Source of the DNA: a virus
Direction: 5' to 3' (one strand)
DNA: 48,041 nucleotides
Virus record (IMG/VR): IMGVR_UViG_3300046355_000078
Location: 1 to 48,041 of that record
The notes under the pieces are model-generated. The model made no database searches. It saw only the letters and a list, made by a program, of their open reading frames with translations, and was not told where the DNA came from. The translations under genes and the position numbers were made by a program. Position 1 is the first letter of the stretch. Every line of letters begins with the position of its first letter. Below, piece after piece: positions 1-38,631 of the stretch.

Positions 1-2453
1 TAGCTGAAGATGCTACTCCTTTTAAACTAGATGTTGGTTCAGGAGACTATTACTTCTCTGAAAATAACTTCTTACCTTCTGGTGGTAATGCTATTAGCTT
101 TACACAGTATTATAGAAACGGTAGTTCAGGTTGGACAACCTCTGTAACTGATACAGTTAACAATACAAACTATGATAACGGTACAGGAACATTAGCATCA
201 TTAACTGCTGGATATGTAACTAAGCATACATTGTATGTTGTAGGAGAAGGAGTGGATGAGAAATACTTCCTTGTATTAGGACAAGCTCAATACTCAAGTG
301 TGGTATTAGCAGAAGGTGCTGCTTTACCTTTGCCTCCTACATATTTTATTGATGGTGTAGTTTCTATTGCTTCTATATACATACAGCAAGGAGACGCTAA
401 CATATTACAAATAGAAGACATTCGTCCTGTAATTGGTTTCAAAGCTAGTGGTGTAAGTGCTACAGCTGTACACGGAAACTTATTAGGACTATCGGCTGAT
501 GACCATACACAGTATCTTCTTGTAGATGGTACAAGACAGATGGCTGGTGATCTTGGTCTTGATGGTAATGATCTTTACAATGTAACTAATATCACTGCTA
601 GTGGTTTAACTGATACCAATACACTTAAAGTAAGTGGTTTAGCTAATGACAATCTGCAGACAAGATTTGTTGTTTCTGATAGCGCTGGTAACTTCTATTA
701 TAGATCAAGTGGAGCAGACGGTACAGCAGGAACTGCAGGTACGGCAGGCACAAGCGCCACTAGTGGTGCAGACGGTGCAACTGGTACAGCTGGTACTTCA
801 GGATCAAGTGGTGCAACAGGATCAAGTGGAGCTACAGGAACTGCTGGTACAAGCGCTACATCTGGAAACAATGGTACTAGCGGAACCAATGGCTCATCAG
901 GCACAACAGGAACATCTGGAACTAATGGGACTTCAGGAGCTAATGGTAGTAGCGGTACTAGTGCTACGTCTGGTGTTAACGGAACTAGTGGAACTAACGG
1001 AACTACTGGTACTAGTGGCACTAACGGTTCATCAGGAACTGCTGGATTAGGTGGTACTTCTGGTACAAACGGATCTTCTGGAACTACTGGTACAACTGGA
1101 ACCAGTGGTGCAAATGGTACTTCTGGAACTAGTGCAACGTCTGGTGCAAACGGTACAAGTGGAATTAACGGAACATCTGGAGTAAATGGTACGTCAGGAA
1201 TAAATGGAACAAGCGGAACCTCTGGAACAAACGGTACATCAGGCATTACAGGAACTTCTGGTACGAACGGAACTTCAGGTACGAATGGAACAAGTGGTAA
1301 TACAGGTACAAGCGGTACTAATGGAACATCAGGTGCTGGTGGAACAAATGGAACTAGTGGAACTAATGGTACATCAGGAGTAAATGGAACTTTTGGTACT
1401 TCAGGAACAAATGGTACATCTGGTGCAAACGGTACAGATGGAACAGCTGGTACTAACGGGACCTCTGGTGTAAGTGGTAACGGTACAGGCGGAACGTCTG
1501 GTACTAATGGTACAAGTGGTGTTAGTGCTAGCCCTGGTGGAACAATAGGAGAAGTTCAATACAATGATGGTGCTGGAGGGTTTGCTGGTGCAGCAAACGT
1601 TGATATAAACAACGGATACTTATCATTGATAGACAATGGTGTAACTCCTACAGCTCCTCCTGCAAGTAACATGTTATTGTTTAGTAGAAGTAGAGGTGGT
1701 CGATTGGTTCCTGCTTTTGTTGGACCTGCTGGTTTAGATACAACTTTACAACCTGCTTTATTTGGTAACACTACATTTGTATGGTTACCAGGTACTGGTA
1801 CAACTACTGCAATTAACTGGGGATCATCATTTACAGCAAGAAACTTAGGAACTGGTGCTGCACAAGCTACCCCTGCAAGAGCATCTACAAATGCTATTAC
1901 ATCAATGAACCGTGCAACGTTTGGTACAGGTACCACTGCTACTGGTGCATCAGGTATTCAAACTTCTAACACTGTAGCGTGGAGAGGTAATGCTGCAGGA
2001 CTTGGAGGATTCTTCTTCTTTGCTCGTTTTGCAATAGAAACATTTGCATCAGATATGAGAGCGTTTGTAGGACTATCAGCAAACAACGCTACTATGGCAG
2101 CAGACCCTTCTACTTTTGCTAACACTGTAGGAATTGGAAAAGATACAGCAGATTCTACTTGGCAGATCATTACAAGAAGTGCTACTACGTTAACTAAAAC
2201 AAACACGGCTATCACTATTAATGCTACAGATATATTAGACTTCTATATGTTTGCTACTCCTAATGGAAGTAACGTAACGTTCAATGTAAGAAATGCTGTA
2301 ACAGGGGCTACGTTATATGCAAATACAGCACTAACAGCAAACTTACCTGCCTCCACCGCATTCTTGTACATGCAAGCTCATACACAGTCTGTAACAGGAA
2401 CCACTGCTAAGCTTTTAGCTCTTAATAGAATGTACTTAGAAACAGATTTATAA
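1..2453 (+). CDS. Tail fibre protein with Thr/Ser-rich collagen-like repeat (5' partial)
   Basis: The reading frame is open from base 3, so the gene runs off the left edge and the ATG at 231 is internal; 816 residues are visible. The N-terminal visible part is globular and contains a DDHTQYLLVDGTRQM segment, a motif typical of T4-type tail fibres near shaft repeats. Bases 712-1533 encode a long Gly-X-Y repeat in which X and Y are almost only Thr, Ser, Asn and Ala, with no Pro until its end. The last 300 residues look like a beta-rich receptor-binding head (WLPGTGTT onward). Two further fibre genes follow on the same strand. Assignment as a fibre is by motif and repeat; the bound receptor cannot be told. 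Confidence 0.85.
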   Translation, partial: AEDATPFKLDVGSGDYYFSENNFLPSGGNAISFTQYYRNGSSGWTTSVTDTVNNTNYDNGTGTLASLTAGYVTKHTLYVVGEGVDEKYFLVLGQAQYSSVVLAEGAALPLPPTYFIDGVVSIASIYIQQGDANILQIEDIRPVIGFKASGVSATAVHGNLLGLSADDHTQYLLVDGTRQMAGDLGLDGNDLYNVTNITASGLTDTNTLKVSGLANDNLQTRFVVSDSAGNFYYRSSGADGTAGTAGTAGTSATSGADGATGTAGTSGSSGATGSSGATGTAGTSATSGNNGTSGTNGSSGTTGTSGTNGTSGANGSSGTSATSGVNGTSGTNGTTGTSGTNGSSGTAGLGGTSGTNGSSGTTGTTGTSGANGTSGTSATSGANGTSGINGTSGVNGTSGINGTSGTSGTNGTSGITGTSGTNGTSGTNGTSGNTGTSGTNGTSGAGGTNGTSGTNGTSGVNGTFGTSGTNGTSGANGTDGTAGTNGTSGVSGNGTGGTSGTNGTSGVSASPGGTIGEVQYNDGAGGFAGAANVDINNGYLSLIDNGVTPTAPPASNMLLFSRSRGGRLVPAFVGPAGLDTTLQPALFGNTTFVWLPGTGTTTAINWGSSFTARNLGTGAAQATPARASTNAITSMNRATFGTGTTATGASGIQTSNTVAWRGNAAGLGGFFFFARFAIETFASDMRAFVGLSANNATMAADPSTFANTVGIGKDTADSTWQIITRSATTLTKTNTAITINATDILDFYMFATPNGSNVTFNVRNAVTGATLYANTALTANLPASTAFLYMQAHTQSVTGTTAKLLALNRMYLETDL
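712..1533 (+). repeat. Pro-free collagen-like Gly-X-Y repeat (GTS/GTN/GSS type)
   Basis: About 270 residues made of triplets such as Gly-Thr-Ser, Gly-Thr-Asn, Gly-Ser-Ser and Gly-Ala-Asn, with Gly at every third position apart from a few breaks. Synonymous Thr, Ser and Gly codons are mixed throughout, so the DNA is much less repetitive than the protein. Such triplets are expected to form a trimeric rod. Nearly every triplet offers one or two hydroxyl side chains. Confidence 0.9.
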
Positions 2454-2466
2454 TCAAAGTTAAAAC

Positions 2467-5247
2467 ATGGCTAAGAATAAGAATTTAGCGGAACTGATTA
2501 ATTACGTTGATGCCAGTACCTCTGGTACATCTGGCAGTGACGTTGTTGTACATGCTCATGGATCCTTAAAGCAGGATGTAGTTGTATCAGCTGTAGTAAA
2601 GGCTGGCACATCTGGCTTATTGATTCCTGCTGTACAGAACACAGACTATCAAGGTCCAATCACTGTCACCTCTACTGGTACATCAGGAGCTGCAACGTTA
2701 GTTGGTAATACTCTTAATATTCCTCAATATCAAAACTCTGGTCCTGGTGGAACTTCAGGTACTGGTGGATCATCTGGTACATCTGCAACTGCAGGTACAT
2801 CTGCTACTAGCGGATCAGCAGGAACAAGTGCTACTAGTGGAACGACAGGTACATCTGGCACTAATGGTTCATCTGGTACTTCAGGTACTAATGGTTCTAG
2901 TGGCACGTCAGGTACATCAGCATCTGCTGGTACATCGGGCAGTTCTGGAACAAGTGGCACAAGTGGTAGCTCTGGTCTTTCAGGCGATAGATATGCTACA
3001 ACATCTTCTACAAGCTTTACATTAGGTAATGCTGGTACACTCACTGTAGGTTTAGGATTAGCGTACACAGCATCTCAGAGTATTAATATTTCTATCAGTG
3101 CTAGTAATCACCAAACCTCTGAGGTAATCTCATATAACTCTGGTACAGGTGCATTAACATTTGGAGCACCTACAGACATTGTAGGAAGCGGATCAGGTAC
3201 ATCTTGGATAGTTAACTTAACAGGAGCAGCTGGAGGAGATGGTTCTTCGGGAACTTCAGGTAGCTCAGGTACTTCAGCTAGTTCTGGTACCTCAGGGACT
3301 AACGGTACTGCTGGTTCTTCTGGTACCAGTGCTACTAGTGGATCTAGTGGAACGTCTGGTACAAATGGAACTTCTGGAAGTAGCGGAACCTCTGCAACAA
3401 GTGGATCTTCTGGTATTTCAAGAACAGCAGGAACATCTGGTACGAATGGTACAACTGGAACATCAGGTACAAATGGTACTAGCGGTAGTTCAGGCACAAG
3501 TGCAACTAGTGGTAGTTCTGCAACATCTGGAACAAGTGCATCTAGTGGATCTAGCGGTACTGCTGGAGTCAATGGTACAAGTGGTAGCTCAGGCACATCA
3601 GGTACAAACGGTACATCAGGATCTAGTGCGACAGCTGGTACTTCAGCATCTTCTGGATCATCAGGTACTACTGGAACAAACGGTTCGAGTGGTACTAGTG
3701 GCACAAGCGCATCTTCGGGTACGTCTGCATCATCTGGTACGTCAGGTTCTTCAGCTACAGCTGGAACTAGTGGATCGTCTGGAACATCTGGATCTTCTGG
3801 TGTAAGTGGCAGTAGTGGAACAAGTGGAGCATCAGGTACATCAGGAAGTAGTGGCACCTCGGGTACTTCAGGTTCTTCAGGTGTAGGAACATTCTCTGGT
3901 ACAACAAACTATGTTCCTAAGTTTACAGCAGCTACTACATTAGGCGATAGTGTAATTTATGATAACGGAACCGCTGTTGGATTTTTTACAAATGCACCAA
4001 CAGCAGATATTCATTTCAAGGTTGCAAGTAATTTAAGTATTAGGAATGAGGCAACTGGAAATAACTCTTCTGTAACTAAATATGATCTCATGTATAATGC
4101 AGCTGGTGTATCATACGATTATACTACTGACATTGATCCGAGTTATTATCTTAAGACATTTTATCATCCTGTAGGATATATTGGACAAAATGGTAGTTCC
4201 ACTAACATTATGTATTTTAATACAGGTTATGATACTGCCACCCTTCAAACATTATCGTTCCAACTAAACGGATATAATAAATTTGAATTAAAACAAAATG
4301 GAGAAGTAGTTATTGGAGCTGATCAACAGGCTACAAGTGTATGGACAAGTTATCCATCTGTACTACGAGGACCTCAACCAGGTACATTTGCAACAGATAC
4401 TATTGGTGGAAACTTAACAATACAAGGCGGAAGAGGTACAGGTACAGGAGTTCCTGGAGATGTAATCATTAAGACAGGAACAGCTGGATCAACTGGTACT
4501 ACTTACAGTACTATGTCTAATAGAGTTGAGGTAAAAAGTAATACAGGTCAAGTAAAATTTAATAACTATACATCAAGTACATCTTTTACAGGAACAGCGA
4601 CTGCTTTATTAGCAGTTGATTCATCTGGAAACATTATTACTAGAGCAACTACTACAGGTTCTTCAGGTACTTCTGGAGCAAATGGTGCTAACGGATCCTC
4701 AGGTACGTCTGGTGCAACTGGTGGAACAGGTAGTTCAGGTACTTCGGGATCATCTGGTCAAGGAACTATCTCAGGTAGTACAAACAACATTGCTAAGTTT
4801 ACTGGAACTACAACCATTGGTAACTCTATTGCTACAGATAACGGATCTACATTTGCTGTAAGTGGTGCAATCACTGCTACAGGAGATGTTACAGCATTCT
4901 CTTCTGATGAAAGACTAAAAGAAAATATTGTAAACATCCCTAACGCATTAGATAAAATATTATCTTTAAATGGTGTTACGTATGATTGGAATGAGAAAGC
5001 ATTGGCATTTGGTTTTGTTCCTGATAACAGAAGACATGATGTTGGATTAATAGCTCAACAAGTAGAGGCTGTACTTCCAGAAGCTATAGCTCCTGCACCA
5101 TTTGATACAGATGTTGATACAGGAAAATCTATAAGTGGTGATAACTATCTAACAGTTAGATATGATAAACTAGTTGCTCTATTAATCGAAGGAGTGAAAG
5201 AGCAGCAAGCTCAGATCGATGAATTGAAAAAACTATTAAATAAATAA
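2467..5247 (+). CDS. Tail fibre with collagen-like repeats and C-terminal peptidase S74 chaperone domain
   Basis: 926 residues. Order: short N-terminal domain with GTSG islands, Gly-X-Y block (2746-2985), small beta domain, long Gly-X-Y block (3232-3892), a beta-rich domain of about 250 residues, a third short Gly-X-Y block (4657-4773), then a C-terminal domain starting SSDERLKENI at about residue 812. That signature belongs to the peptidase S74 intramolecular chaperone of endosialidases and T5-type fibres. The domain helps the fibre trimerise and cuts itself off next to the conserved Ser. The end (KEQQAQIDELKKLLNK) is a coiled coil, also typical. The gene starts 13 bp after the previous fibre and both use the same Thr/Ser triplets. 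Function as a fibre is well supported; the receptor is unknown. Confidence 0.92.
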   Translation: MAKNKNLAELINYVDASTSGTSGSDVVVHAHGSLKQDVVVSAVVKAGTSGLLIPAVQNTDYQGPITVTSTGTSGAATLVGNTLNIPQYQNSGPGGTSGTGGSSGTSATAGTSATSGSAGTSATSGTTGTSGTNGSSGTSGTNGSSGTSGTSASAGTSGSSGTSGTSGSSGLSGDRYATTSSTSFTLGNAGTLTVGLGLAYTASQSINISISASNHQTSEVISYNSGTGALTFGAPTDIVGSGSGTSWIVNLTGAAGGDGSSGTSGSSGTSASSGTSGTNGTAGSSGTSATSGSSGTSGTNGTSGSSGTSATSGSSGISRTAGTSGTNGTTGTSGTNGTSGSSGTSATSGSSATSGTSASSGSSGTAGVNGTSGSSGTSGTNGTSGSSATAGTSASSGSSGTTGTNGSSGTSGTSASSGTSASSGTSGSSATAGTSGSSGTSGSSGVSGSSGTSGASGTSGSSGTSGTSGSSGVGTFSGTTNYVPKFTAATTLGDSVIYDNGTAVGFFTNAPTADIHFKVASNLSIRNEATGNNSSVTKYDLMYNAAGVSYDYTTDIDPSYYLKTFYHPVGYIGQNGSSTNIMYFNTGYDTATLQTLSFQLNGYNKFELKQNGEVVIGADQQATSVWTSYPSVLRGPQPGTFATDTIGGNLTIQGGRGTGTGVPGDVIIKTGTAGSTGTTYSTMSNRVEVKSNTGQVKFNNYTSSTSFTGTATALLAVDSSGNIITRATTTGSSGTSGANGANGSSGTSGATGGTGSSGTSGSSGQGTISGSTNNIAKFTGTTTIGNSIATDNGSTFAVSGAITATGDVTAFSSDERLKENIVNIPNALDKILSLNGVTYDWNEKALAFGFVPDNRRHDVGLIAQQVEAVLPEAIAPAPFDTDVDTGKSISGDNYLTVRYDKLVALLIEGVKEQQAQIDELKKLLNK
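2746..2985 (+). repeat. Gly-X-Y (GTS/GSS) block 1 of second fibre
   Basis: About 80 residues of Gly-Thr-Ser, Gly-Ser-Ser and Gly-Thr-Ala triplets between two globular segments. It has the same composition and codon mixing as the repeat in the preceding fibre. Confidence 0.85.
3232..3892 (+). repeat. Gly-X-Y (GTS/GSS) block 2 of second fibre
   Basis: About 220 residues of Gly-X-Y triplets dominated by Thr, Ser, Asn and Ala, with no Pro. One triplet is broken by an Arg (GISRTAG). Synonymous codons alternate, which would limit recombination between repeat units. Confidence 0.88.
4657..4773 (+). repeat. Gly-X-Y block 3 of second fibre, before the S74 domain
   Basis: About 38 residues of GSSGTSGANGANG-type triplets linking the beta-rich domain to the C-terminal region that carries the S74 chaperone. 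Confidence 0.75.
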
Positions 5248-5249
5248 CT

Positions 5250-6221
5250 ATGGCATTACCTTCTTCAGGACCATTGAGTATTGGTCAAATTCGTACAGAA
5301 TTAGGTTCTGGTAGTGGATCTTTAAGAACATTGAGTTCTTTAGCAGGAAAATCAACACCTGATTCTATATCTGAATTCTATGGATATTCATCTTGGAGTG
5401 CCAGTGGAGGAAACTCAACCATTAACTCAGGAGGATATAGAGTACATGTGTTTACAAGTTCTGGAACTCTTACAGTTTCAGGAAGTAAGTCTTGTGAGTT
5501 TCTTTTAGTTGGTGGAGGTGCAGCTGCTTGGTATCGTGGTGAAGCTGGAGGAGGTGGATCTTTTGATGGATCTGGAGGAGGTGGTGCAGGTGGTTGGGTA
5601 AACACAAGTGTTACTGTAGGTAGCAACGTAACTGTTACTATTGGAGGAGGAGGAACAGGTATTCAACAAGGAGCTCAATCGGGTCCAAATACACAAGGAG
5701 GAAACACAACTGTTTCTGGCGGAGCTAATTTAACAGCTACTGGTGGAGGTAGAGGAGGTAGATTTAATTCATATGATGTAAATGGATCGGGTCCAGGAAA
5801 TGGTGGTTGTGGTGGAGGTCGTGGACGTGGTGGATACGGTGGTGTTGGTGGATTAGGATCTCAAGGTGGAAACGGAGGTTGGAGAACTGGTTGGACAAAC
5901 GGTAACGGACCTGGTGGTGGTGGAGGAACATATCAATCTGGAGGAAACGGATCTGGTGGAAATCAAGGTGGTGGAGGTGGAGCTGGTAATCTTAATTCTT
6001 GGTTAGGATCTACTATTCGTTTAGGTGGAGGTGGTGGTGGAAGTTCATATACAGGAACAGGAGGAGCAGCAGGAGCTGGTGGTGGAGGAGCAGGTAAAGC
6101 ATATCCTCCTTCAGGAGCAGTGTTGTATGGTGATAATGGTTCTGCTAATACTGGTGGAGGCGGAGGTGCTGAAGGTGGAGCAGGTGGATCAGGGATAGTT
6201 TATATTAGATATTTATTGTAA
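5250..6221 (+). CDS. Glycine-rich tail tip / adhesin-like protein
   Basis: 323 residues. The N-terminal 45 residues (MALPSSGPLSIGQIRTEL, then a Ser-rich stretch ending EFYGYS) match a short module seen at the start of many phage tail proteins. The rest starts with a beta-rich segment (YRVHVFTSSGTLTV, then EFLLVGGGAA) and becomes Gly-rich with runs of 4-5 Gly, as in the Gly-rich domain of phage adhesins. By analogy with gp38-type tip adhesins, these runs could pack as polyglycine helices that display variable loops; that is inference. It begins 2 bp after the S74 fibre and may cap it. No catalytic motif is visible. Confidence 0.75.
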   Translation: MALPSSGPLSIGQIRTELGSGSGSLRTLSSLAGKSTPDSISEFYGYSSWSASGGNSTINSGGYRVHVFTSSGTLTVSGSKSCEFLLVGGGAAAWYRGEAGGGGSFDGSGGGGAGGWVNTSVTVGSNVTVTIGGGGTGIQQGAQSGPNTQGGNTTVSGGANLTATGGGRGGRFNSYDVNGSGPGNGGCGGGRGRGGYGGVGGLGSQGGNGGWRTGWTNGNGPGGGGGTYQSGGNGSGGNQGGGGGAGNLNSWLGSTIRLGGGGGGSSYTGTGGAAGAGGGGAGKAYPPSGAVLYGDNGSANTGGGGGAEGGAGGSGIVYIRYLL

Positions 6222-6227
6222 TTAAGT

Positions 6228-6719
6228 ATGGGACATTTTGCAGAAATAGATGAGAATAATATTGTATTAAGAGTAATAGTAGCTGAGCAAGACTTTATTG
6301 ACTCTGGAGCTGTAGGCGATCCATCAAAGTGGATTCAAACTTCATATAATACAAAAGCTGGTGTTCATACATTAGGAGGAACTCCTTTTAGAAAAAACTA
6401 TGCAGCAACGGGAATGATATGGGATCCTGTAAGAGATGCATTTTATGGACAACAACCTACACCAAGTTTTACATTTGATGAAGAAACTTGTACATGGCAA
6501 TTCCCACCTAAACCAGTGAATGATAATAGAAGATATACATACAATTTTGCAGCAGATAAGTGGGAATTATTATTTAATCCTAAACCTTATGAGTCTTGGA
6601 CTTGGAATGAAGATACATACTTTTGGGATCCACCTATTCCTTATCCTGAAGAATATAGTACCACTGAGGAACCTCGTTATATGTGGGATGAAGAAAACCT
6701 GAATTGGGTATTAAAGTAA
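6228..6719 (+). CDS. Aromatic-rich small tail-associated protein
   Basis: 163 residues, starting MGHFAEIDENNIVLRVIVA and rich in Trp, Tyr and Pro. Phrases such as WIQTSYNT, GGTPFRKNYA and repeated W-x-W-[ND]-E-[ED]-T-type units (FTFDEETCTWQF, WTWNEDTYFW, MWDEENLNWV) look like short tandem beta units. Proteins like this sit beside tail-fibre genes in many marine and freshwater phages, with no known function. It is 6 bp downstream of the Gly-rich adhesin. A virion role is inferred from context. Confidence 0.7.
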   Translation: MGHFAEIDENNIVLRVIVAEQDFIDSGAVGDPSKWIQTSYNTKAGVHTLGGTPFRKNYAATGMIWDPVRDAFYGQQPTPSFTFDEETCTWQFPPKPVNDNRRYTYNFAADKWELLFNPKPYESWTWNEDTYFWDPPIPYPEEYSTTEEPRYMWDEENLNWVLK

Positions 6720-6735
6720 ATTTTATTTACATTTG
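6704..6735 (+). promoter_or_regulatory. Bacteroidota-type promoter for the sulfotransferase gene
   Basis: TTG at 6704-6706, a 21 bp spacer, then TACATTTG at 6728-6735, matching the Bacteroidota -33/-7 pattern. The expected transcript starts near 6741, 14 bases before the ATG at 6755. The -33 element lies inside the end of the preceding gene. Confidence 0.65.
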
Positions 6736-6754
6736 TTATTATATAACTACATGT

Positions 6755-7579
6755 ATGACAAAGAAAGTTTTCTATAACGCATCTTTACCTAGATCAGGAT
6801 CTACATTATTACAAAATGTATTAGCACAAAATCCTGATCTCTACACAAGTCCTACATCTGGACTATTTGATATACTAACAGGTACAAGAAATGTATATAC
6901 TAATACAACAGAGTTCGTTGCTCAAGATCAATCCATTACAATTAATGGATATAGAAGCTTAGTAAAAGGAGCATTGTATGGGTATTATGATGGAATTACA
7001 GACAAACCTTATTCCATTGATAAGAACAGAAGCTGGATTGGAGAATATAAGTTTATAGATGCGTTTGATCCAAACCCAAAGATCATATGTATGGTGAGAG
7101 ACTTACGTAGCATCTATGCATCTATAGAAAAGAAATACAGAAGTAATTCGTTATTAGATCATGAGCTTACTAATTGGCAAGACTTACGTGGTGTAACTAC
7201 ATACAAAAGAGTTGTTGAGCTTTCTACATCAAGGTTAATTTCTACATCAACTGAATCTATCTATCAGTCAATATTGGAAGGATATGATAAGAAAATTTTA
7301 TTTATAAAGTTTGAAGAGTTTTGTATCGATCCTATTTCACATTTGAAAAAGATTTATAAATACCTAGAGCTACCTTACTTTGAGCATGATGTAAATAACG
7401 TTGAACAAGTTACACATGAGAATGATCAATTATACGGATCGTTTGCAGATCACATTATTAAGCCAACCATAACTCCTTTACAAGAAGACTATAAACATGT
7501 TCTTGGTTTCCCTGTATGTAAATTAATTACAGACACATACGATTGGTACTATCATCATTTTGATTATAAAATATTTTAG
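6755..7579 (+). CDS. Sulfotransferase family protein
   Basis: 274 residues. The 5'-phosphosulfate loop is SLPRSGSTLL at residues 10-19 and the 3'-phosphate region is VRDLRSIYASI around residue 113; both bind PAPS in this family. The enzyme would move sulfate from PAPS to a hydroxyl on a glycan or on Tyr, Ser or Thr. I chose ATG 6755 over an in-frame ATG at 6704 because the promoter -7 box lies at 6728-6735 and the family motif starts just after MTKKVFYNA. The next gene, 1 bp downstream, is an APS-kinase-like protein that could make PAPS. The acceptor is unknown; fibre glycans are the obvious candidate from the neighbourhood. Confidence 0.85.
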   Translation: MTKKVFYNASLPRSGSTLLQNVLAQNPDLYTSPTSGLFDILTGTRNVYTNTTEFVAQDQSITINGYRSLVKGALYGYYDGITDKPYSIDKNRSWIGEYKFIDAFDPNPKIICMVRDLRSIYASIEKKYRSNSLLDHELTNWQDLRGVTTYKRVVELSTSRLISTSTESIYQSILEGYDKKILFIKFEEFCIDPISHLKKIYKYLELPYFEHDVNNVEQVTHENDQLYGSFADHIIKPTITPLQEDYKHVLGFPVCKLITDTYDWYYHHFDYKIF

Positions 7580-7580
7580 A

Positions 7581-8009
7581 ATGATTATTGTATTATTTGG
7601 TCAACCAGGTTCTGGTAAAACAACCCTTGCTAAAGAGCTATTGAAGTATGATAAATATTATCATATAGATGGTGACGTGTTACGAGAACTATTCTCTAAC
7701 AAAGACTACAGTAGAGAAGGGCGTATGGTGAACCTTAATAGAGCTAGTGATATTGCTACCTATCTAAACACTAGAAGCGATGTCATTCTATCACTAGTGT
7801 ATCCATATAATGAGGCTAGAAAGTATCTAAGCTCTCTAGCCTCTAATGTTAAATGGTTCTTGTTAGTTAGTGACGCAGATAGAAACAAGTCTCAGTTCAA
7901 AGTGAATGACTGGGAAGACCCTCTCTTGTCCGAAAACGTAAACATCATCAACACTGATATATCTATAGAAGACTGCCTAATGAAGATACTACATCTTCTA
8001 CGGAAATAG
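7581..8009 (+). CDS. Adenylylsulfate (APS) kinase-like P-loop kinase
   Basis: 142 residues. Walker A is GQPGSGKTT (residues 7-15), followed by HIDGD (28-32), FSNKDYSREGR (38-48) and a later segment SLVYPYNEARK. This order matches CysC (GxSGxGKST, LDGD, LGFSxxDRxEN, SFISPxRxxR), which phosphorylates APS to PAPS. It is shorter than usual (about 200 residues) and lacks the clear DPKGLYKKAR lid region, so a related small kinase is possible. I chose ATG 7581, one base after the sulfotransferase stop, over an in-frame ATG at 7560. The pairing with a sulfotransferase makes PAPS supply the most likely role. The 3' end overlaps the convergent gene by 47 bp. Confidence 0.72.
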   Translation: MIIVLFGQPGSGKTTLAKELLKYDKYYHIDGDVLRELFSNKDYSREGRMVNLNRASDIATYLNTRSDVILSLVYPYNEARKYLSSLASNVKWFLLVSDADRNKSQFKVNDWEDPLLSENVNIINTDISIEDCLMKILHLLRK

Positions 8010-9021
8010 ACTTGTGACATTCAAACTGTCTAGGAGTATCTTCATGCTCAGGACACCAGTTCCAATCCCCCTTATTAAACTTGAACTTAGGATTGTTCCA
8101 GCATCCATTGCATACGCTCCTGTTCTCTACACGGATACATTCAAACTCGTGATCACTAGTAGTAAAATTTGCAATCATTACAACTTTTACTGATAGTGCC
8201 CAGGCTAACCAACTGATACCGCTACTAAGTCCTATGTAGAACTCACATCCACGGAGGTGATTTATAACACTCTCTAGAGAAGTATCTTCTAGTTTCTCTG
8301 CACCATAATCATTTGCTTCCTTAGATAGCTCTATCACTCTGTATCCTTGATCTTTTAATCTACTAATAAGCTGTGGCCATTTGTCCCAGTGTTTACATTC
8401 AGATGTACTTCTAGTAGAGGTACAAACATACTTCTCACCTTCTAGTAATACTCCTGGTAGATCAACAATCCTTGGTCTAATCTCCTTGTATGGTAGATGT
8501 AGAATAGTACATGCAGATTTTTGTAATGGTATCGTTATAGGATTGATGGGTTCTTTATTACTATCCCAGTGCCATCCTAGCTCTGGCATAGCTACAATGT
8601 TCTCTACAACCTCTCCTGGTTTAACAAACTCAAGCTCAGGATAATCAAACAAGAAGTTCTTGAATGTACTAACGATGACGTCGCACTGGTATTTCTTCTT
8701 GAACTCTAGACAATAAGGCATCCATGCAATGGTGTCTCCTAGTGAGCTACTACCAAATGCAATGAATACACGTTTACCTTTGAGATGTTGCAAGAAGCTT
8801 ATACGATGCTTCAATACACCGTTAGCATTTCTAGCTTCTACAAAGAAGTTACCTATGTAGCGCACATCTATCTTCATCCAGCTATTGTTACCAAGAGTTG
8901 TACTATAGTGCAACTTACGCTCACCATTTATTTCTTCAATAAATGCACAGATATACTCTTCATCACAGTCTGTGATCTCAAAGTATAGTCCATCGATGCT
9001 ATAAAATTTGTAATTAAACAT
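7963..9021 (-). CDS. BAHT-type autotransporter O-heptosyltransferase-like glycosyltransferase
   Basis: 352 residues. Residues 1-90 form a beta-rich N-terminal domain. The rest is a GT-B fold of the heptosyltransferase type (FIAFGSSSLGDTIAWMPY, then IGLSSGISWLAWAL). The C-terminus has Cys304, Cys307, Cys323 and Cys335 in CNGCW, WNWCP and FECHKS, the iron-finger pattern of bacterial autotransporter heptosyltransferases such as TibC and AAH. Those enzymes add heptose to Ser in beta-strand-loop-strand repeats of surface proteins. A phage copy near Thr/Ser-rich fibres suggests that fibres are its acceptor, which is inference. Start overlaps the stop of the upstream GT4 by 8 bp; they are one operon read leftward. 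Confidence 0.75.
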   Translation of the reverse strand: MFNYKFYSIDGLYFEITDCDEEYICAFIEEINGERKLHYSTTLGNNSWMKIDVRYIGNFFVEARNANGVLKHRISFLQHLKGKRVFIAFGSSSLGDTIAWMPYCLEFKKKYQCDVIVSTFKNFLFDYPELEFVKPGEVVENIVAMPELGWHWDSNKEPINPITIPLQKSACTILHLPYKEIRPRIVDLPGVLLEGEKYVCTSTRSTSECKHWDKWPQLISRLKDQGYRVIELSKEANDYGAEKLEDTSLESVINHLRGCEFYIGLSSGISWLAWALSVKVVMIANFTTSDHEFECIRVENRSVCNGCWNNPKFKFNKGDWNWCPEHEDTPRQFECHKSISVEDVVSSLGSLL

Positions 9022-10021
9022 ATGATTCTATATAAGCTTTAGTTGTATCATCACTAGTCCATTTCTTGTTTACAATACTAGCAGCATTGTAGAACTTCTT
9101 GAGCTGTTTACATACTTGAAACCAGCTGTAATTCTCACGTTGATTTAATTGATCATGATAATATCTAAACCATTGTGTGTCTAAAATTACTAATCCTTTA
9201 ACTGCTTCCTCAAGACTTATGTCTTTCATTCTATACATACCTGGTACATCTACATTACATGTACCTACAATAGGTAGTCCACAACTCATTGCCTCTAAGA
9301 TAGATAAGTTAGGATGTCCATACTCTAAGAATGATGGTGCCATGAATATACTGTGTGTCTGATACAGCTCAAGAGTTTCAGCATCTGTAGGATTTGTTAA
9401 CTTTAAAGTTAACTTATCATACTCTAATAGATCCTTATGATGCTCAAAGAATTCGTTATTGCTCTCTGGTCCAGCAATGGTGATAGGTAGTTTATATTTC
9501 TTAGCTACTTCAATTGCTATCCTAAATCCTTTACGATCTATAGATGGATCACCTGCTAATCCATTGTTACATATCATTAATAGTTTCTTAGTCTTTCGTA
9601 CATCTGGTAGGATGGGTTTAAAGAAATCTGTATTAACACCATGTGGTAGATAGAACAGTTTGTCTGTACCATCAAAGTAATCTATGATGTGCTTACTATG
9701 ACAGATAGATATGACAGATCCTTTGATTGCTTCAAGGTTATTCTTGTATACACCACTATCTTTACCATACCATTCAGCATGGTGATCATGTAATGAGTAG
9801 ATGTATGGAATACCTTTATCACGCATGTCAAGAGCTGTGTTATACATGTGACAATGTACAATAGTGTTCTCTTCATACACTACTTCATTCCAGTTCTTTA
9901 TCTCTACATCAATGTCCATCAGCTGTAGATTGCTGGCGTACTCCCAGATGATACGTTCTACAGCCCCCCAACCATTGGGTGGTATACTGATAAGTCCTGT
10001 TGCTACTTGAACTATTTTCAT
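9014..10021 (-). CDS. GT4-family glycosyltransferase
   Basis: 335 residues, GT-B fold. The N-terminus, MKIVQVATGLISIPPNGWGAVE, holds the Gly-rich acceptor loop. The C-terminal half has GLPIVGTCNVDVPGM and the signature EYGHPNLSILEAMSCGLP, with E and EAMSCGLP as the donor-sugar binding element of GT4 enzymes. The family transfers sugars from nucleotide donors with retention. Overlaps the multidomain transferase upstream by 4 bp. The sugar is not predictable. Confidence 0.88.
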   Translation of the reverse strand: MKIVQVATGLISIPPNGWGAVERIIWEYASNLQLMDIDVEIKNWNEVVYEENTIVHCHMYNTALDMRDKGIPYIYSLHDHHAEWYGKDSGVYKNNLEAIKGSVISICHSKHIIDYFDGTDKLFYLPHGVNTDFFKPILPDVRKTKKLLMICNNGLAGDPSIDRKGFRIAIEVAKKYKLPITIAGPESNNEFFEHHKDLLEYDKLTLKLTNPTDAETLELYQTHSIFMAPSFLEYGHPNLSILEAMSCGLPIVGTCNVDVPGMYRMKDISLEEAVKGLVILDTQWFRYYHDQLNQRENYSWFQVCKQLKKFYNAASIVNKKWTSDDTTKAYIESYV

Positions 10022-12633
10022 TTTCTGAATTTTTTATATTGTTTGTCAATCAATGAGTAACCATCTGCTTGTGTTGTTAGACGCTTATGTACTATCCCCA
10101 TTCTATAAGGGCTTCCATAAAATATATGGTTGAAATACATATCAGCTGCATCCCAGTTTTCTAAACGCAACTTCTGCTTTAAAAAGTTACTGACATAAGA
10201 AGGGAACATAATACATTGTAGTCCTATCAAATGATCTGTAATATACATATCTTGATTGACTTCTTCAACTACTGGACTCTGTGGCCATCCAAACTCTAAC
10301 GTATCCTTATCTCCAAAGGACATAAAGCCTACATAGTTATCCTTTAGTTTAGCTGCACATCTCTCCACTGTATCTACAAACTCTTTCATCTCTGTTTCGA
10401 TGATGCAGTCTCCCTCACATACAATCAGATAATCACAATCACTCATCTCACTTAATATCGCATTCCTGAAGGCTTCATAGCAACCGTAGTGTGCTGGCGT
10501 AAGAGCTGTGCCTCTTTCTCTGACTTCATCGTCATTGAATAACTCCATAGAGACTGCTTGTGGTCTGTTACAGTTATGCTTGGGTGGGAGGCTATTATAA
10601 GGGACGTTCTGGTGGAGGATGTAGTCCCATCCGTAAGCTTCGACTTGTTCCAACGAAGCTCTAGATAATCTTTCTCTATCATCGTTTAATGTAGTTTGAA
10701 GGTGTACTAATTTAATCTTAGGTCTGTCTACTCTAGGAATATCTATTTGTTTAATATCTATAGTTCCTATTACCTGATCTACATAATAAAATCTTGAAGT
10801 GTCGTCTTCAACTGATTCTAATTGTATCCTAAATACATCATCAAGTAGTGGAAGGTATAGTTCTCTATCTTTGAATCCATGTATGTGTAGTAGATTACCC
10901 TCTTTATCATATTGGCTTACATGATATTGTGATACATCTTCATTGTATGAATAGAAGTAGAAATACTTAATACCAAACTTCTCATAGTTTACAATACCAA
11001 CATACTCACTGTTAGAAGACTTACCATGACCACTATACTCTAAGAATGTTTCCTCTTCAGGATACTCTACCCACACACCTTTAGTCTTCCAAACTTTCTT
11101 CATCATGTAGTCTTCTAGGAAGTTCTGACATCCTAGATTCTCACATAGTCTATTGTAATCTTCTGGCGTACGTACATCATCTAGAAGTGTAGTGACAAAC
11201 TTGGTGTTAAAGAACATACCATTAGTCTGTATACCCTTACCAAATGGTGTATTTAATGTAGCTAGTACAGCTTGCCATTCTTTATCTAATTGATGGAATC
11301 TACTATTGATTTCATGGAAATCATTTTCATCAAGCTCTATGTCAAAGGTTACATAGAACATCTTTGTATATCCAAGACCTACAGCAGCTTTGCTTGCATT
11401 AACTAAGTTAGTTAGAACAGTGAGTGACTGGTTACTATCACCTTCTATTCTCATCTCTACATTATAATCATCTGTGCTACGAGTGAAACGATTGTAATAA
11501 CTATGGTGTGTAAGAGGGTTGTGTGCATCGTATACATAGTGATCTACCATCCTTTGTATCTGTAATGATACAGGATAGTGACTAACTAACATGATAGGTC
11601 TTTCTAACTTCTTAGCACTCTCGATACATTTGATAGTTAGTTCTTCTCTGATCTTGGTGTTAGGATATGTACCAATGACAGTGAGCTCTTTGTTTTTAGA
11701 CTCTAGTTGTAACATATTCTTTATATTAGTTGCATCTTTAATTGAATCACCAGTTAGATAAGTGACATCCTCGTAGTTGTTGTACTTGTTACAATAGACA
11801 TCTAGATTGTACATAAACTTATGGACATGTTTGTATACTAGTGCTTCTTTAATGGCAATAGGATTAAGCTCTTTGTTACCTCTGTCACCCTTAGATGGGA
11901 ATAAGAATAAGTCAGAGTTCTTCACCCACTCATCAACGTTATCCACCTCACCTTCCACTGTACAGTTCTCAGGAATGTTATCCATCAATGGTTTCCAGTA
12001 GCGTTCAAAGTTACCAGCTTGATTACCTAAGAAGTGGAAGTGTATGTTGTAGTCTTGTAACCATCTAGCTATCTCTAGAGCATACGCCTGGTTCTTTCTT
12101 TCTGTCCACAGTCCTACAATAACTACGCGTTTGATAAATACAATTGGATGATCTATATCTCTCTCATCTACAGGATACTCAATTACCTCCATTGGTACAT
12201 TCAGGTATGAGTATTTGAACATGTTATATGCACTAACAAACACAAAATTATCAGGCATCCATCTCTTCTCATGAGGAGGGAATGAGCTATCGTGTGTAGT
12301 CTCTACAATCTTGTAAGGTCTTCCTTCTTCGTATATCAAACTTGTAAGAGTGTTATCCATAAACATCTCAGGAAACTCTTCCATAGAGATGACATCTGGA
12401 TTGAACTCATCAATGATATCTAAGAGCTCCATCTTGTTCTCACCTAGTGATCTGAACTTCTTACCAACTATGGCTTCCACCTGTTTACGTTGTACCACAT
12501 AGTTCCATGCAAGGAATGCGTATTCTACCACCATGATATCAAAGTGATCCTTGAGTAGTTGTACTTTGTTAAGTGTTACCTGTGGTGCTCCTCCTGTACT
12601 AAAGTGTGGCGAGACAATCAATAATTTCTTCAT
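10018..12633 (-). CDS. Large multidomain glycosyltransferase (GT4 + GT-A-like + GT25-like)
   Basis: 871 residues. Residues 1-290: GT4-like GT-B domain (MKKLLIVSPHFSTGGAPQVT; VVIVGLWTERKNQAYALEIA; LNPIAIKEALVYKH). Residues about 325-600: a GT-A-like segment (ELTVIGTYPNTKIREELT; FYVTFDIELDEND). Residues about 635-871: GT25/LPS-glycosyltransferase-like segment (KLVHLQTTLNDDRERLS; LTPAHYGCYEAFRNA; DYLIVCEGDCIIE, with ED as the metal-binding acidic pair). Such fusions can build a short oligosaccharide in one polypeptide; that is inference. I chose ATG 12633 (MKKLLIV) over the in-frame ATG at 12642. It overlaps the GT9 gene upstream. Confidence 0.78.
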   Translation of the reverse strand: MKKLLIVSPHFSTGGAPQVTLNKVQLLKDHFDIMVVEYAFLAWNYVVQRKQVEAIVGKKFRSLGENKMELLDIIDEFNPDVISMEEFPEMFMDNTLTSLIYEEGRPYKIVETTHDSSFPPHEKRWMPDNFVFVSAYNMFKYSYLNVPMEVIEYPVDERDIDHPIVFIKRVVIVGLWTERKNQAYALEIARWLQDYNIHFHFLGNQAGNFERYWKPLMDNIPENCTVEGEVDNVDEWVKNSDLFLFPSKGDRGNKELNPIAIKEALVYKHVHKFMYNLDVYCNKYNNYEDVTYLTGDSIKDATNIKNMLQLESKNKELTVIGTYPNTKIREELTIKCIESAKKLERPIMLVSHYPVSLQIQRMVDHYVYDAHNPLTHHSYYNRFTRSTDDYNVEMRIEGDSNQSLTVLTNLVNASKAAVGLGYTKMFYVTFDIELDENDFHEINSRFHQLDKEWQAVLATLNTPFGKGIQTNGMFFNTKFVTTLLDDVRTPEDYNRLCENLGCQNFLEDYMMKKVWKTKGVWVEYPEEETFLEYSGHGKSSNSEYVGIVNYEKFGIKYFYFYSYNEDVSQYHVSQYDKEGNLLHIHGFKDRELYLPLLDDVFRIQLESVEDDTSRFYYVDQVIGTIDIKQIDIPRVDRPKIKLVHLQTTLNDDRERLSRASLEQVEAYGWDYILHQNVPYNSLPPKHNCNRPQAVSMELFNDDEVRERGTALTPAHYGCYEAFRNAILSEMSDCDYLIVCEGDCIIETEMKEFVDTVERCAAKLKDNYVGFMSFGDKDTLEFGWPQSPVVEEVNQDMYITDHLIGLQCIMFPSYVSNFLKQKLRLENWDAADMYFNHIFYGSPYRMGIVHKRLTTQADGYSLIDKQYKKFRK

Positions 12634-13546
12634 AAATTTCATTTACTTCTGGATGACATTCAAATGTTTCTTTATTTTCAAGGCAACCTATTAATGGCTG
12701 TACGCCTTGTATAGATCCCCATTCCTTAATACCATACTTCATATTAGAACAACATTGTAAATCACATGTTCCTCTGACGTACTTGTAATCAATGTGTTGT
12801 TTACCATATCTATATGGTGTTCTGAAATCAGGATTGAGTGACGAACCCAAGTGAATAATGGGAGTACTTGTAGTGCCAGCGAGATGTAGTAACCCACTGT
12901 CCATAGTTATAAAACATGCTGCATTATTTATAAGGTGATAACATTCTGATATAGATGTCTGATTCATTAAATTCATTCCATAAGGAATGTCAAAGTTAAA
13001 CACAGGTTTCTCTATATTAAAGAACCCAGTCTCTGAACTATCCTTACCTATACTGATGACATATATTCCATCATCATTAAGCTTCTTAACAAGTTCCATC
13101 CACTTCTCAGCAGCCCATGTTCTATTAGCCCATGTAGTTACAGGATGTATCAGTATATACTTTTGGTGTATACTATTCTTAGGTGATTCGATAGGAATGT
13201 AATCACAATGTAATTCCTTACTGTTCAACATAAAGCCAAGATGAACAGCATGAAACTGACGTATATCCATGGTGTTGTGCTTCATCTCTACACCACGCTC
13301 GTCCTTCTTACCTACAAGATAAAAGGAGTTATGCATAGTGTAATGTTCATTGAAGTAATTCCAATCAATAGATGTGGATTTGTAACTAGCCTCCACGTAA
13401 TCAAGCTTCTTAAATAGCTCTGGCATAGGGCTAACCACAGTTATCTTCTGTTCGTATGATTCAGCCAGCTTTCTTATTGTAGGCGTAGCACAGATAAGAT
13501 CTCCTAATGCAGGACATTCACTAAGGTTTAGACAAACAGGTTTCAT
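12599..13546 (-). CDS. GT9 heptosyltransferase-like glycosyltransferase
   Basis: 315 residues. N-terminus LNLSECPALGDLICATPTIRKL is the GT9 (ADP-heptose:LPS heptosyltransferase) phosphate-loop pattern. The C-terminal half has ILIHPVTTWANRTWAAEKW and FITMDSGLLHLAGTTSTPIIHLG, the GT9 donor-site motif. The C-terminus is Cys-rich (CDLQCC and FECHPE) and resembles the iron-finger end of the BAHT-like enzyme in the same operon. The gene overlaps the FkbM gene upstream by 4 bp. Donor probably ADP-heptose or a related sugar made by the host; this is inference. Confidence 0.82.
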   Translation of the reverse strand: MKPVCLNLSECPALGDLICATPTIRKLAESYEQKITVVSPMPELFKKLDYVEASYKSTSIDWNYFNEHYTMHNSFYLVGKKDERGVEMKHNTMDIRQFHAVHLGFMLNSKELHCDYIPIESPKNSIHQKYILIHPVTTWANRTWAAEKWMELVKKLNDDGIYVISIGKDSSETGFFNIEKPVFNFDIPYGMNLMNQTSISECYHLINNAACFITMDSGLLHLAGTTSTPIIHLGSSLNPDFRTPYRYGKQHIDYKYVRGTCDLQCCSNMKYGIKEWGSIQGVQPLIGCLENKETFECHPEVNEIYEEIIDCLATL

Positions 13547-14187
13547 GCTTTTCTCATTAAGAAGTCAGGAGTCAAATTATCTTTCTCAATTATCTCATAT
13601 CCTAATCCTATTAGGAACCGTACAGCAGTGTCTGTATTATCTTCTAACCAAATCAGTGGTTCGTCTTTCTTAATCAACTCTACCATACCTTCGAATGCAG
13701 AAACTTCATGACCTTCTATATCTATCTTGATGAAATTAACACGCTCATCTAAATGAATATCATCTAGTGCAAACACTATATTCTTATTCTCTCCGTTTGG
13801 TACGATTCTTACAACTCCACTATTTGATTCATGTCCATTGTCAAAAGAGACAATAGATGTCCTGCTACCTACACCTACATTAAGTGCGGCTACATCAGAA
13901 TACCTATCTGTATTCTGTTTCAATAAAGCAAAGTTATCTGGATGGGGTTCGAAAGCTACGATCTTTAGCTTAGGAAAGAAGTGCTTGAACTGCACACAAT
14001 GTCCACCTATGTTGGCACCGATGTCTAACATCAATCCTGTGGAAGGAAAATAAGATTTCCACCTATTAAATATATCAAATTCCCAAAAGTTATTATACTT
14101 AACTATGTCGTCTGATATACACTCAGGACCTTCGAAGATAATCATAGGTGTCCCTTGTATACTTATAAGTCTAGTCCCCCGTCTCAT
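13543..14187 (-). CDS. FkbM-family SAM-dependent methyltransferase
   Basis: 214 residues. SAM-binding motif LMLDIGANIGGHCVQF, acidic motif AFEPHPDNFALL, and FIKIDIEGHEVSAFEG, the FkbM hallmark. FkbM enzymes O-methylate sugars or polyketides; here a sugar hydroxyl on a fibre or surface glycan is likely. I chose ATG 14187 (MRRGTRL) rather than an in-frame ATG at 14235 because a TTG-20-TAACTTTG promoter lies at 14235-14205. It is the first gene of the leftward glycosyltransferase operon. Confidence 0.83.
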   Translation of the reverse strand: MRRGTRLISIQGTPMIIFEGPECISDDIVKYNNFWEFDIFNRWKSYFPSTGLMLDIGANIGGHCVQFKHFFPKLKIVAFEPHPDNFALLKQNTDRYSDVAALNVGVGSRTSIVSFDNGHESNSGVVRIVPNGENKNIVFALDDIHLDERVNFIKIDIEGHEVSAFEGMVELIKKDEPLIWLEDNTDTAVRFLIGLGYEIIEKDNLTPDFLMRKA

Positions 14188-14190
14188 GTA

Positions 14191-14222
14191 TTTGTTGGTT
14201 TGTTCAAAGTTAAATATATTTG
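14191..14222 (+). promoter_or_regulatory. Bacteroidota-type promoter for the DUF6165-like gene
   Basis: TTTG at 14191-14194, 20 bp, TATATTTG at 14215-14222. The ATG is at 14239. Both elements fit the Bacteroidota consensus. It shares bases with the divergent promoter of the glycosyltransferase operon, so only one polymerase could sit there at a time. Confidence 0.7.
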
Positions 14223-14235
14223 TATAAAAAAACAA
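14205..14235 (-). promoter_or_regulatory. Bacteroidota-type promoter of the leftward glycosyltransferase operon
   Basis: On the minus strand TTG at 14235-14233, 20 bp, then TAACTTTG at 14212-14205. The expected transcript begins near 14199, about 12 bases before the FkbM ATG at 14187. It overlaps a plus-strand promoter. Confidence 0.6.
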
Positions 14236-14238
14236 GAT

Positions 14239-14607
14239 ATGTATATAGATGTTAGTACAGGAGAAGTAGCTGATAAGATCAGCATCCTGGTTATCAAGAA
14301 TGAGAAGATCACTGACACAGCTAAGCTAGCTAATGTTCAGAAAGAACTCAGCGCATTGGTTGAACTATTCCCTGCAGAGATACTAATTGACAAGTTGTAT
14401 AGTCAACTATGTCATGTGAATATTCAACTATGGCACATAGAAGATGCTCTTAGAGAAAAGGAACGTATGGGTGAGTTTGATGGTAAGTTTATAGAACTTG
14501 CACGTGAGGTTTACTTCACAAATGATAAGAGAGCAGCTCTCAAAAAAGAAATAAATATTAAGTATGGATCTGATATTGTAGAAGAAAAATCTTATAAACC
14601 ATATTAA
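14239..14607 (+). CDS. DUF6165-like protein
   Basis: 122 residues, MYIDVSTGEVADKISILVIKNEK followed by KLANVQKELSAL, WHIEDALREKERMGEF and a C-terminal KSYKPY. This looks like the DUF6165 family, which is often found beside glycosyltransferase genes and has no known function. Mostly helical, no membrane segment. Start chosen from the promoter; an in-frame ATG at 14155 lies before the -7 box. Family name is from memory and should be confirmed. Confidence 0.72.
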   Translation: MYIDVSTGEVADKISILVIKNEKITDTAKLANVQKELSALVELFPAEILIDKLYSQLCHVNIQLWHIEDALREKERMGEFDGKFIELAREVYFTNDKRAALKKEINIKYGSDIVEEKSYKPY

Positions 14608-17847: not shown

Positions 17848-17848
17848 T

Positions 17849-19289: not shown

Positions 19290-19293
19290 GATC

Positions 19294-19479: not shown

Positions 19480-19507
19480 TAAAGATTAAACCAATAACTA
19501 ACTACAT

Positions 19508-36209: not shown

Positions 36210-36226
36210 TTTGTGATTGTTTATAA

Positions 36227-36262: not shown

Positions 36263-36301
36263 TCAAGTTGAAAATACTATTTAACTAATTGATAATCAGA
36301 A

Positions 36302-38620: not shown

Positions 38621-38631
38621 GATTTCTAGTT

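What the first reader, a model, noticed from the sequence alone, without database searches (positions are those of the whole stretch)
6704..14235. Candidate phage-encoded fibre glycosylation and sulfation system
A sulfotransferase, an APS-kinase-like protein, a BAHT-like O-heptosyltransferase, GT4, a three-part glycosyltransferase, GT9 and a FkbM methyltransferase lie directly beside fibres made of hundreds of Thr/Ser-rich Gly-X-Y triplets. The genes are seen; the idea that they build sulfated, methylated glycans on the fibres is inference. Related precedent: BclA-type collagen proteins with O-glycosylated Thr, and glycosylated Thr stabilising proline-poor worm collagen.
Basis: partly seen in the sequence, partly recalled or inferred. 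Interest (0 to 1): 0.85.

Follow-up and report, generated by a model that had tools for sequence, protein, structure and literature searches.

The report
Phage enzymes for sugar-coating collagen-like fibres
A freshwater phage carries, beside its collagen-like tail fibres, a set of sugar-adding enzymes led by a relative of the bacterial adhesin O-heptosyltransferases; across many phages this enzyme goes with threonine/serine-rich collagen-like repeats and was found in none of 41 phages carrying the proline/glutamine-rich kind, which suggests that phages sugar-coat these fibres, although no one has yet looked at the protein.

Summary
The genes are real. Window 6755-14607 encodes a sulfotransferase, an APS-kinase-like protein, a TibC/Aah-type O-heptosyltransferase (BAHT), a GT4, a multidomain GT, a GT9, an FkbM methyltransferase and a DUF6165 protein, beside two fibres with about 154 strict Gly-X-Y triplets (X = Thr/Ser, Y = Ser/Asn, no Pro). 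The BAHT is the firmest call (NCBIfam above cut-off; TibC E 8.5e-43; AlphaFold model matches TibC, TM 0.84).

I ran the co-occurrence test. Viral contigs picked only by a Thr/Ser-type Gly-X-Y DNA pattern carry a BAHT in 28 of 62; those picked by a Pro/Gln-type pattern in 0 of 41 (p 3e-8). A generic GT family does not differ. The one named isolate with a BAHT (Microcystis phage Mel-JY01) has 202 such triplets next to it, unannotated. Gammaproteobacterial relatives sit beside lipoproteins with (Gly-Ser/Thr-Ser) tails. These BAHTs form a clade lacking TibC's ring-forming thumb. Sister phages without the cassette also lack the repeats.

Best reading: the BAHT starts O-glycosylation of the fibre repeats; the other enzymes extend and decorate it. 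Sugar identity, sulfation and methylation are inferred; no direct evidence of modification exists.

The parts
3..2453 (+). collagen-like fibre A (5' end beyond window), 77 strict Gly-X-Y triplets, Thr/Ser-rich, Pro-free; proposed acceptor
   Evidence: Pfam Collagen 6.5e-30
2467..5247 (+). collagen-like fibre B with C-terminal Peptidase_S74 chaperone domain, 77 strict Gly-X-Y triplets; proposed acceptor
5250..6221 (+). glycine-rich fibre-tip-like protein (Gly_rich_2)
   Evidence: 1.4e-7
6228..6719 (+). phrog_7759 protein, unknown function, follows fibres in some relatives
   Evidence: 1.2e-29
6755..7579 (+). PAPS-type sulfotransferase (ORF listed from 6704; homologues start at the ATG at 6755)
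   Evidence: Sulfotransfer_3 9e-16; phrog_27463 2e-38; TPST1 3.9e-7; alignment
7581..8009 (+). APS-kinase-like P-loop protein, probable PAPS supply; starts 1 base after the sulfotransferase stop
   Evidence: APS_kinase 8e-11; PDB APS kinases; co-occurrence 9/9
7963..9021 (-). BAHT-type O-heptosyltransferase, proposed initiating enzyme
   Evidence: TIGR04414 219.6 bits > 200; TibC 8.5e-43; AF2 pLDDT 90.1; Foldseek TibC 1.2e-27, TM 0.84
9014..10021 (-). GT4-type glycosyltransferase; fused to the BAHT in some relatives
   Evidence: fusion
10018..12642 (-). multidomain glycosyltransferase: N-terminal GT4-type domain (GTa) plus two further, probably GT-A, domains (GTb, GTc); GTa is fused to the BAHT in several relatives
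   Evidence: weak fold match to GT-A/GT25-type enzymes
12599..13546 (-). GT9 glycosyltransferase
   Evidence: PF01075 1.6e-18
13543..14187 (-). FkbM-family methyltransferase (ORF listed to 14235; homologues start at the ATG at 14187); optional part of the cassette
   Evidence: TIGR01444 2.3e-22
14239..14607 (+). DUF6165 protein, divergent from the operon, conserved with the BAHT in most relatives
   Evidence: PF19662 2.6e-7, above cut-off

Best explanation
This is a phage-encoded O-glycosylation cassette for the phage's own collagen-like fibres. The BAHT-like enzyme transfers a sugar, most likely heptose from an NDP-heptose of the host, to Ser/Thr hydroxyls in the Gly-(Thr/Ser)-(Ser/Asn) repeats in the infected cell's cytoplasm before assembly. 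GT4, the multidomain GT and GT9 extend the glycan; FkbM and the PAPS-fed sulfotransferase are optional decorations that differ between relatives. Shown: the genes, their families, the conservation of the core, the gene fusions, the statistical and positional pairing of this BAHT clade with Thr/Ser-type Gly-X-Y repeats, the pairing of sulfotransferase with kinase, and conservation of the catalytic base, phosphate-binding, sugar-binding and iron-finger residues. Inferred: that the repeat is the acceptor, which residue is modified, the sugar, the order of steps, the roles of methyl and sulfate groups, and the benefit (stiffening of proline-free triple helices, protease resistance, or tuning of surface properties).
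For: (1) Fibre-first test: contigs of 30 kb or more chosen by a Thr/Ser-type Gly-X-Y DNA pattern carry a BAHT in 18/39, then 10/23 in a second batch; Pro/Gln-type in 0/27, then 0/14, the second batch scored in one search with the positives. Total 28/62 vs 0/41, p 3.3e-8; at 80 kb or more, 15/20 vs 0/8. (2) Specificity: generic GT2 (PF00535) is found in 14/50 Thr/Ser and 14/41 Pro/Gln contigs, so one set is not simply richer in glycosyltransferases. (3) In the window's wider clade 26/28 BAHT+ records have the repeats, and the two misses have the BAHT within 4 kb of a contig end. (4) Sister phages G032 and G034 have the fibre locus but no BAHT, GT4, multidomain GT, GT9, FkbM or DUF6165 homologue, and only Pro/Gln-type Gly-X-Y with Thr/Ser 0.05-0.07. 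(5) Mel-JY01, the only named isolate with a match among 50,697 phage records, has 202 Gly-X-Y triplets (Thr/Ser 0.79) ending 1.7 kb from its BAHT fusion; the 735-kb phage LR756501 has 65 repeat matches. (6) Four of the five nearest cellular BAHTs lie beside short Thr/Ser Gly-X-Y ORFs; in the other 46 of 50 cellular loci none was seen in the stretch fetched. (7) BAHT is fused to GT4 or to GTa in several lineages. (8) D96, K210, W271 and the four iron-finger Cys are invariant in 41 phage BAHTs; TibC needs the equivalents (PMC4358343).
Against: No biochemical evidence. Contigs in the pattern test are related to unknown degrees, so the p-values are uncorrected; on a tree of the window's clade there are too few independent gains and losses for significance. 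LR756504 has a divergent BAHT and no such repeats in 636 kb. More than half of the Thr/Ser contigs show no BAHT, although many are fragments. In 5 of the 18 positives whose distance was worked out the BAHT lies over 40 kb from the pattern match. The adenine-contacting Arg286 of TibC is replaced in most phage BAHTs, so the donor may not be ADP-heptose. Fibre-side GTs of other phages have been read as host O-antigen modifiers (PMC7029224).
Confidence: 0.72

Rival explanations
1. The cassette modifies the host's surface glycan (LPS, capsule) during infection, for superinfection exclusion or to stop progeny binding to debris; its place beside the fibres only reflects a shared host-interaction island.
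For: GT9, GT4 and FkbM families are typical of LPS/EPS loci; pelagimyophage fibre-side GTs were read this way (PMC7029224); genes in such islands vary between relatives.
Against: It does not predict that one GT clade tracks the Thr/Ser composition of the fibre repeats (28/62 vs 0/41) while generic GT2 does not. The characterised BAHTs modify proteins (PMC4358343). No flippase or polymerase was seen in the cassette. Chromosomal relatives sit beside repeat lipoproteins.
Confidence: 0.15
2. The pairing is a by-product of host or phage lineage: Thr/Ser-type Gly-X-Y fibres and the BAHT both happen to be common in the same large aquatic phages, without an enzyme-substrate relation.
For: Contigs are not independent and the tree-corrected test is underpowered; the two pattern sets may differ in hosts.
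Against: The pairing recurs in viral records of very different size (30-735 kb) and probably different hosts (a cyanophage; a clade whose helicase is nearest crAss-like phages), in bacterial chromosomes, and both are jointly absent in one subclade nested within the BAHT+ phages. The window has a second, Pro/Gln-type collagen away from the cassette.
Confidence: 0.1
3. Only the GT part concerns the fibre; the sulfotransferase and kinase are a separate module acting on another target (host glycan, lipid or tyrosine). This is compatible with the main part of the best explanation.
For: They are absent from most BAHT+ relatives and lie at either end of the cassette; cyanophages carry related sulfotransferases; the best PDB match is a protein-tyrosine sulfotransferase.
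Against: All 9 records with the sulfotransferase also have the BAHT, and in those inspected the pair flanks the GT cassette.
Confidence: 0.35

Closest known systems
Bacterial autotransporter heptosyltransferases TibC and Aah (BAHT family, TIGR04414, PDB 4rap)
   Same: Fold (TM 0.84), catalytic Asp, phosphate-binding Thr (Ser in a few) and Lys, sugar-binding Trp, four-Cys iron finger; encoded near a large repetitive surface protein
   Different: The beta-hairpin thumb needed for the active TibC dodecamer is missing; Arg286 replaced in most phage copies; separate clade (100/100); partner is a Gly-X-Y fibre rather than a beta-helical autotransporter; often fused to GT4-type domains
Mycobacteriophage virion glycosylation (Che8, Rita; as cited in PMC11256854)
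   Same: Phage-encoded glycosyltransferases that modify the phage's own virion proteins
   Different: There the acceptor is the major capsid protein and the glycan is demonstrated; here collagen-like fibres, a BAHT-type initiating enzyme and a sulfotransferase, all unproven
BclA-type glycosylated bacterial collagens and glycosylated-Thr cuticle collagen
   Same: O-glycans on Thr in Gly-X-Y triplets
   Different: Those are cellular and mostly Gly-Pro-Thr; here Thr/Ser fill X, Ser/Asn fill Y, there is no Pro, and the initiating enzyme is of another family
Collagen glycosyltransferases COLGALT1 / LH3 (GT25-type)
   Same: Best PDB fold matches of the second and third domains of the multidomain GT (E 2e-8 to 8e-7)
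   Different: Model confidence is low (pLDDT 67, TM 0.23-0.28); Pfam GT25 reached by one of 15 members only at E 0.03; no membership claimed
Prophage collagen-like proteins of pathogenic E. coli (PMC3368898, title and abstract only)
   Same: Collagen-like sequences in phage-encoded proteins
   Different: No glycosylation cassette is mentioned in the abstract

Membership tests
BAHT (TibC/Aah) O-heptosyltransferases | Score above the curated equivalog cut-off TIGR04414 | tested here: met
   219.6 vs 200 bits
BAHT (TibC/Aah) O-heptosyltransferases | Catalytic Asp110 and donor-binding Thr226, Lys230, Trp305 | tested here: met
   D96, K210, W271 invariant in 41 phage copies; T206 in 37 of 41, Ser in 4 (residues)
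BAHT (TibC/Aah) O-heptosyltransferases | Iron-finger Cys339/342/358/370 | tested here: met
   C304, C307, C323, C335 in 41 of 41 (residues)
BAHT (TibC/Aah) O-heptosyltransferases | Donor-contacting Arg286 | tested here: not met
   V252 in the window; Arg in 5 of 41 phage and 51 of 51 cellular copies
BAHT (TibC/Aah) O-heptosyltransferases | Beta-hairpin thumb that joins dimers into the dodecamer | tested here: not met
   Segment median 22 residues (20-36) in phages and 23 in repeat-linked Gammaproteobacteria vs 32 in the others; F265/V266 region gapped in the window
BAHT (TibC/Aah) O-heptosyltransferases | Neighbouring autotransporter substrate | tested here: not met
   Neighbours are collagen-like and S74-type fibres
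BAHT (TibC/Aah) O-heptosyltransferases | Heptosyltransferase activity | not testable with these tools
   needs an enzyme assay
PAPS-dependent sulfotransferases | Family profile and PAPS-binding motifs | tested here: met
   PF13469 9e-16; conserved SLPRSGSTLLQ-like and MVRDLR..S-like motifs
APS kinases | Profile above cut-off and P-loop / DGD / APS-site motifs | tested here: inconclusive
   Pfam met (42.6 vs 21.1 bits), NCBIfam cut-offs not met (45.3 vs 127); GQPGSGKTT, IDGD, YSREGR..NL, YPYNEAR conserved
GT25 collagen galactosyltransferases | GT25 profile match or confident fold match | tested here: inconclusive
   Foldseek top hits LH3/COLGALT1 on a low-confidence model; Pfam E 0.03 in 1 of 15
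Phage virion-glycosylation systems | Glycan on a virion protein | not testable with these tools
   needs mass spectrometry of virions

The most novel reading that the evidence does not exclude
A thumbless clade of BAHT enzymes, shared by phages and some Gammaproteobacteria, is a dedicated O-glycosyltransferase for Gly-(Thr/Ser)-(Ser/Thr/Asn) repeats. It builds extended, in some phages sulfated and methylated, glycans on proline-free collagen-like phage fibres: a phage counterpart of glycosylated collagen.
Probability: 0.4. Interest if true: 0.87.

Novelty: new variant of a known kind. Interest (0 to 1): 0.76.

Why it matters
Few phages are known to glycosylate their own virions, and I found no paper in the searched library linking BAHT-type enzymes to phages or to collagen-like repeats. 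If true, it explains what some glycosyltransferase clusters beside phage fibres do (often read as host-surface modifiers), gives a protein-modifying enzyme with a simple repetitive acceptor, suggests how proline-free collagen-like fibres could be stabilised or tuned, and points to a directly testable isolate, Microcystis phage Mel-JY01. The sequence rule (Thr/Ser Gly-X-Y plus BAHT) lets the prediction be extended to metagenomic phages.

Tried and rejected
PDB sequence search with the whole multidomain GT and its alignment: no relative. AlphaFold of its second and third domains: low confidence, used only as a lead. PDB search for DUF6165: nothing. Tree-corrected test of joint gain and loss in the 115-kb clade: too few independent pairs, inconclusive. 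The generic 'GT-rich phage' explanation was tested with PF00535 and rejected. The idea that Asn-Gly-Thr/Ser in the repeats are N-glycosylation sequons was set aside: no family scan of the cassette hit an N-glycosyltransferase. A tblastn match of fibre B in G032/G034 was not confirmed by phmmer with its C-terminal part; the long fibres at that place lack Gly-X-Y runs. Paper searches for phage sulfotransferases and for Mel-JY01: none held. The 2023 mycobacteriophage virion-glycosylation paper is not held.
Full report
OBSERVATION. The window is a 48,041-base virus record, a fragment of a phage whose same-clade relatives run to about 111-119 kb. Family scans give sulfotransferase, APS-kinase-like, BAHT, GT4, GT4-plus-unknown, GT9 and FkbM. 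The BAHT passes NCBI's equivalog cut-off (219.6 vs 200 bits) and matches TibC at 8.5e-43. Relatives move several starts inward: sulfotransferase 6755, kinase 7581, FkbM 14187, DUF6165 14239. The minus-strand genes overlap at their ends, as in an operon reading FkbM, GT9, multidomain GT, GT4, BAHT. Two fibres upstream carry 154 strict Gly-X-Y triplets with X = Thr/Ser, Y = Ser/Asn and no Pro. A third collagen, at 17849-18769, is of Pro/Gln type.

THE CASSETTE IS CONSERVED. A scan of viral contigs with the BAHT gave 35 loci. In 32 the GTa domain of the multidomain GT lies near or is fused to the BAHT; in the other three the locus is cut by a contig end. GT4, GT9 and DUF6165 are frequent; FkbM, sulfotransferase and kinase are optional. 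In several lineages BAHT is fused to GT4 (L022, L033, L034, L037), to GTa (L030, L031, G021, G022, G028, G033, G035, G050) or to GTc and GTa (L036), which argues that these enzymes act on one product. Sulfotransferase and kinase occur together in all 9 sulfotransferase-bearing records; the kinase alone in 2 of 50, one of them cut by the contig end (p 2e-8).

THE CASSETTE GOES WITH THR/SER GLY-X-Y. Nearly every BAHT locus with enough flank has a Thr/Ser-rich Gly-X-Y ORF within 10 kb. Across 50 records of the wider clade, 26 of 28 BAHT+ and 5 of 22 BAHT- have a repeat match, and two of those five are weak. The two BAHT+ misses have the BAHT within 4 kb of a contig end. G032 and G034, about 114 and 111 kb and nested in the BAHT+ clade, have none of the cassette genes, and their only Gly-X-Y is of Pro/Gln type. 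To avoid choosing by the enzyme, I drew contigs by fibre DNA pattern: Thr/Ser type 28/62 with BAHT, Pro/Gln type 0/41. Generic GT2 is about equally frequent in both. Of the first 18 positives, 12 have the pattern match within 13 kb of the BAHT, one at about 20 kb and five at over 40 kb (worked out).

INDEPENDENT CASES. The only named isolate with a match in 50,697 phage records is Microcystis phage Mel-JY01. Its BAHT is the C-terminal part of a 1,226-aa fusion annotated as FkbM, with a GT4-type N-terminal part. Just upstream an unannotated ORF (2-3049) has 202 Gly-X-Y triplets at Thr/Ser 0.79, and short repeat ORFs follow. The 735-kb phage LR756501 has 65 repeat matches, one about 5 kb from its BAHT; LR756504 (636 kb) has a divergent BAHT and no repeats, a real counter-example. 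In bacterial genomes four of the five nearest BAHTs (36-40%; Gammaproteobacteria, Acidiferrobacterales, Arenicellales) sit beside short Thr/Ser Gly-X-Y ORFs. In the three inspected, these are lipoprotein-like with (GSS/GTS)n tails, and the surroundings look chromosomal, not phage. The other 46 cellular loci show no such repeats, and the plasmid BAHTs inspected lie beside AIDA-type autotransporters.

STRUCTURE AND PHYLOGENY OF THE BAHT. The AlphaFold model (pLDDT 90.1) matches TibC at TM 0.84, far ahead of WaaC. Residues that TibC needs (PMC4358343) are kept: D96, T206 (Ser in a few), K210, W271 and four iron-finger Cys. Two features differ: Arg286 is replaced in 36 of 41 phage copies, and the thumb that builds the active dodecamer is missing in most phage copies and in the repeat-linked gammaproteobacterial copies. 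A tree splits repeat-linked plus phage BAHTs from the autotransporter type with 100/100 support; one MAG contig without seen repeats (L566) falls with the first group. Thumb loss and repeat linkage coincide on that one split, so this counts as a single event, not as repeated evidence.

MECHANISM. The best-supported reading is cytoplasmic O-glycosylation of fibre repeats, started by the BAHT and extended by the GT4, multidomain and GT9 enzymes, with optional methyl and sulfate groups. Acceptor, sugar and order are inferred. The loss of Arg286 makes ADP-heptose as donor uncertain. The second and third domains of the multidomain GT resemble GT-A enzymes; the top matches are the collagen-modifying LH3 and COLGALT1, but on a low-confidence model, so this is a lead only.

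LIMITS. All evidence is comparative. Contigs are not independent, and a tree-corrected test had too little power. Many contigs are fragments, so absences are soft. Hosts are unknown; the helicase is nearest crAss-like phages at about 30%. The paper library searched excludes most subscription journals.

Noticed in passing
Microcystis phage Mel-JY01 PP395634.1 2-3049 (+) and 9143-9983 (+) (L558): Large Thr/Ser Gly-X-Y fibre ORF missed in the deposited annotation, which lists hypothetical proteins on the opposite strand instead.
   Followed up: partly
Mel-JY01 PP395634.1 146571-147170: Annotated prolyl 4-hydroxylase in a phage that also has collagen-like repeats.
   Followed up: no
L564:11186-11809(-), L567:8497-8922(-), L565:7505-8029(-): Lipoprotein-like bacterial proteins with (Gly-Ser/Thr-Ser)n tails beside a thumbless BAHT in Gammaproteobacteria; possible cellular version of the same modification.
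   Followed up: partly
L290:50-433(-) and L293:729-1112(+): A 128-aa nucleotidyltransferase (CTP_transf_like; weak ATP-sulfurylase match, E 0.045) next to the APS-kinase-like gene; possible sulfate-activation partner.
   Followed up: partly
L199:10716-11588(-); equivalent at 18974-19846 of G034: A 291-aa protein between the fibre locus and the p15294 homologue in phages lacking the cassette; looks GT9-like by eye but has no Pfam match.
   Followed up: partly
LR756504.1 457373-458215 (L563): Divergent BAHT in a 636-kb phage with no Thr/Ser Gly-X-Y repeats: what does it modify?
   Followed up: partly
window 16807-18769: Second fibre group: a leucine-rich-repeat (BspA-type) protein and a Pro/Gln-type collagen, away from the cassette.
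   Followed up: no
window 34770-38656: rIIA/rIIB-like lysis-inhibition genes in a phage whose helicase is nearest crAss-like phages.
   Followed up: no
G082:C1:81369-82532 and G016:C1:17433-18530: A second, divergent BAHT-like gene in phages that already have one.
   Followed up: no
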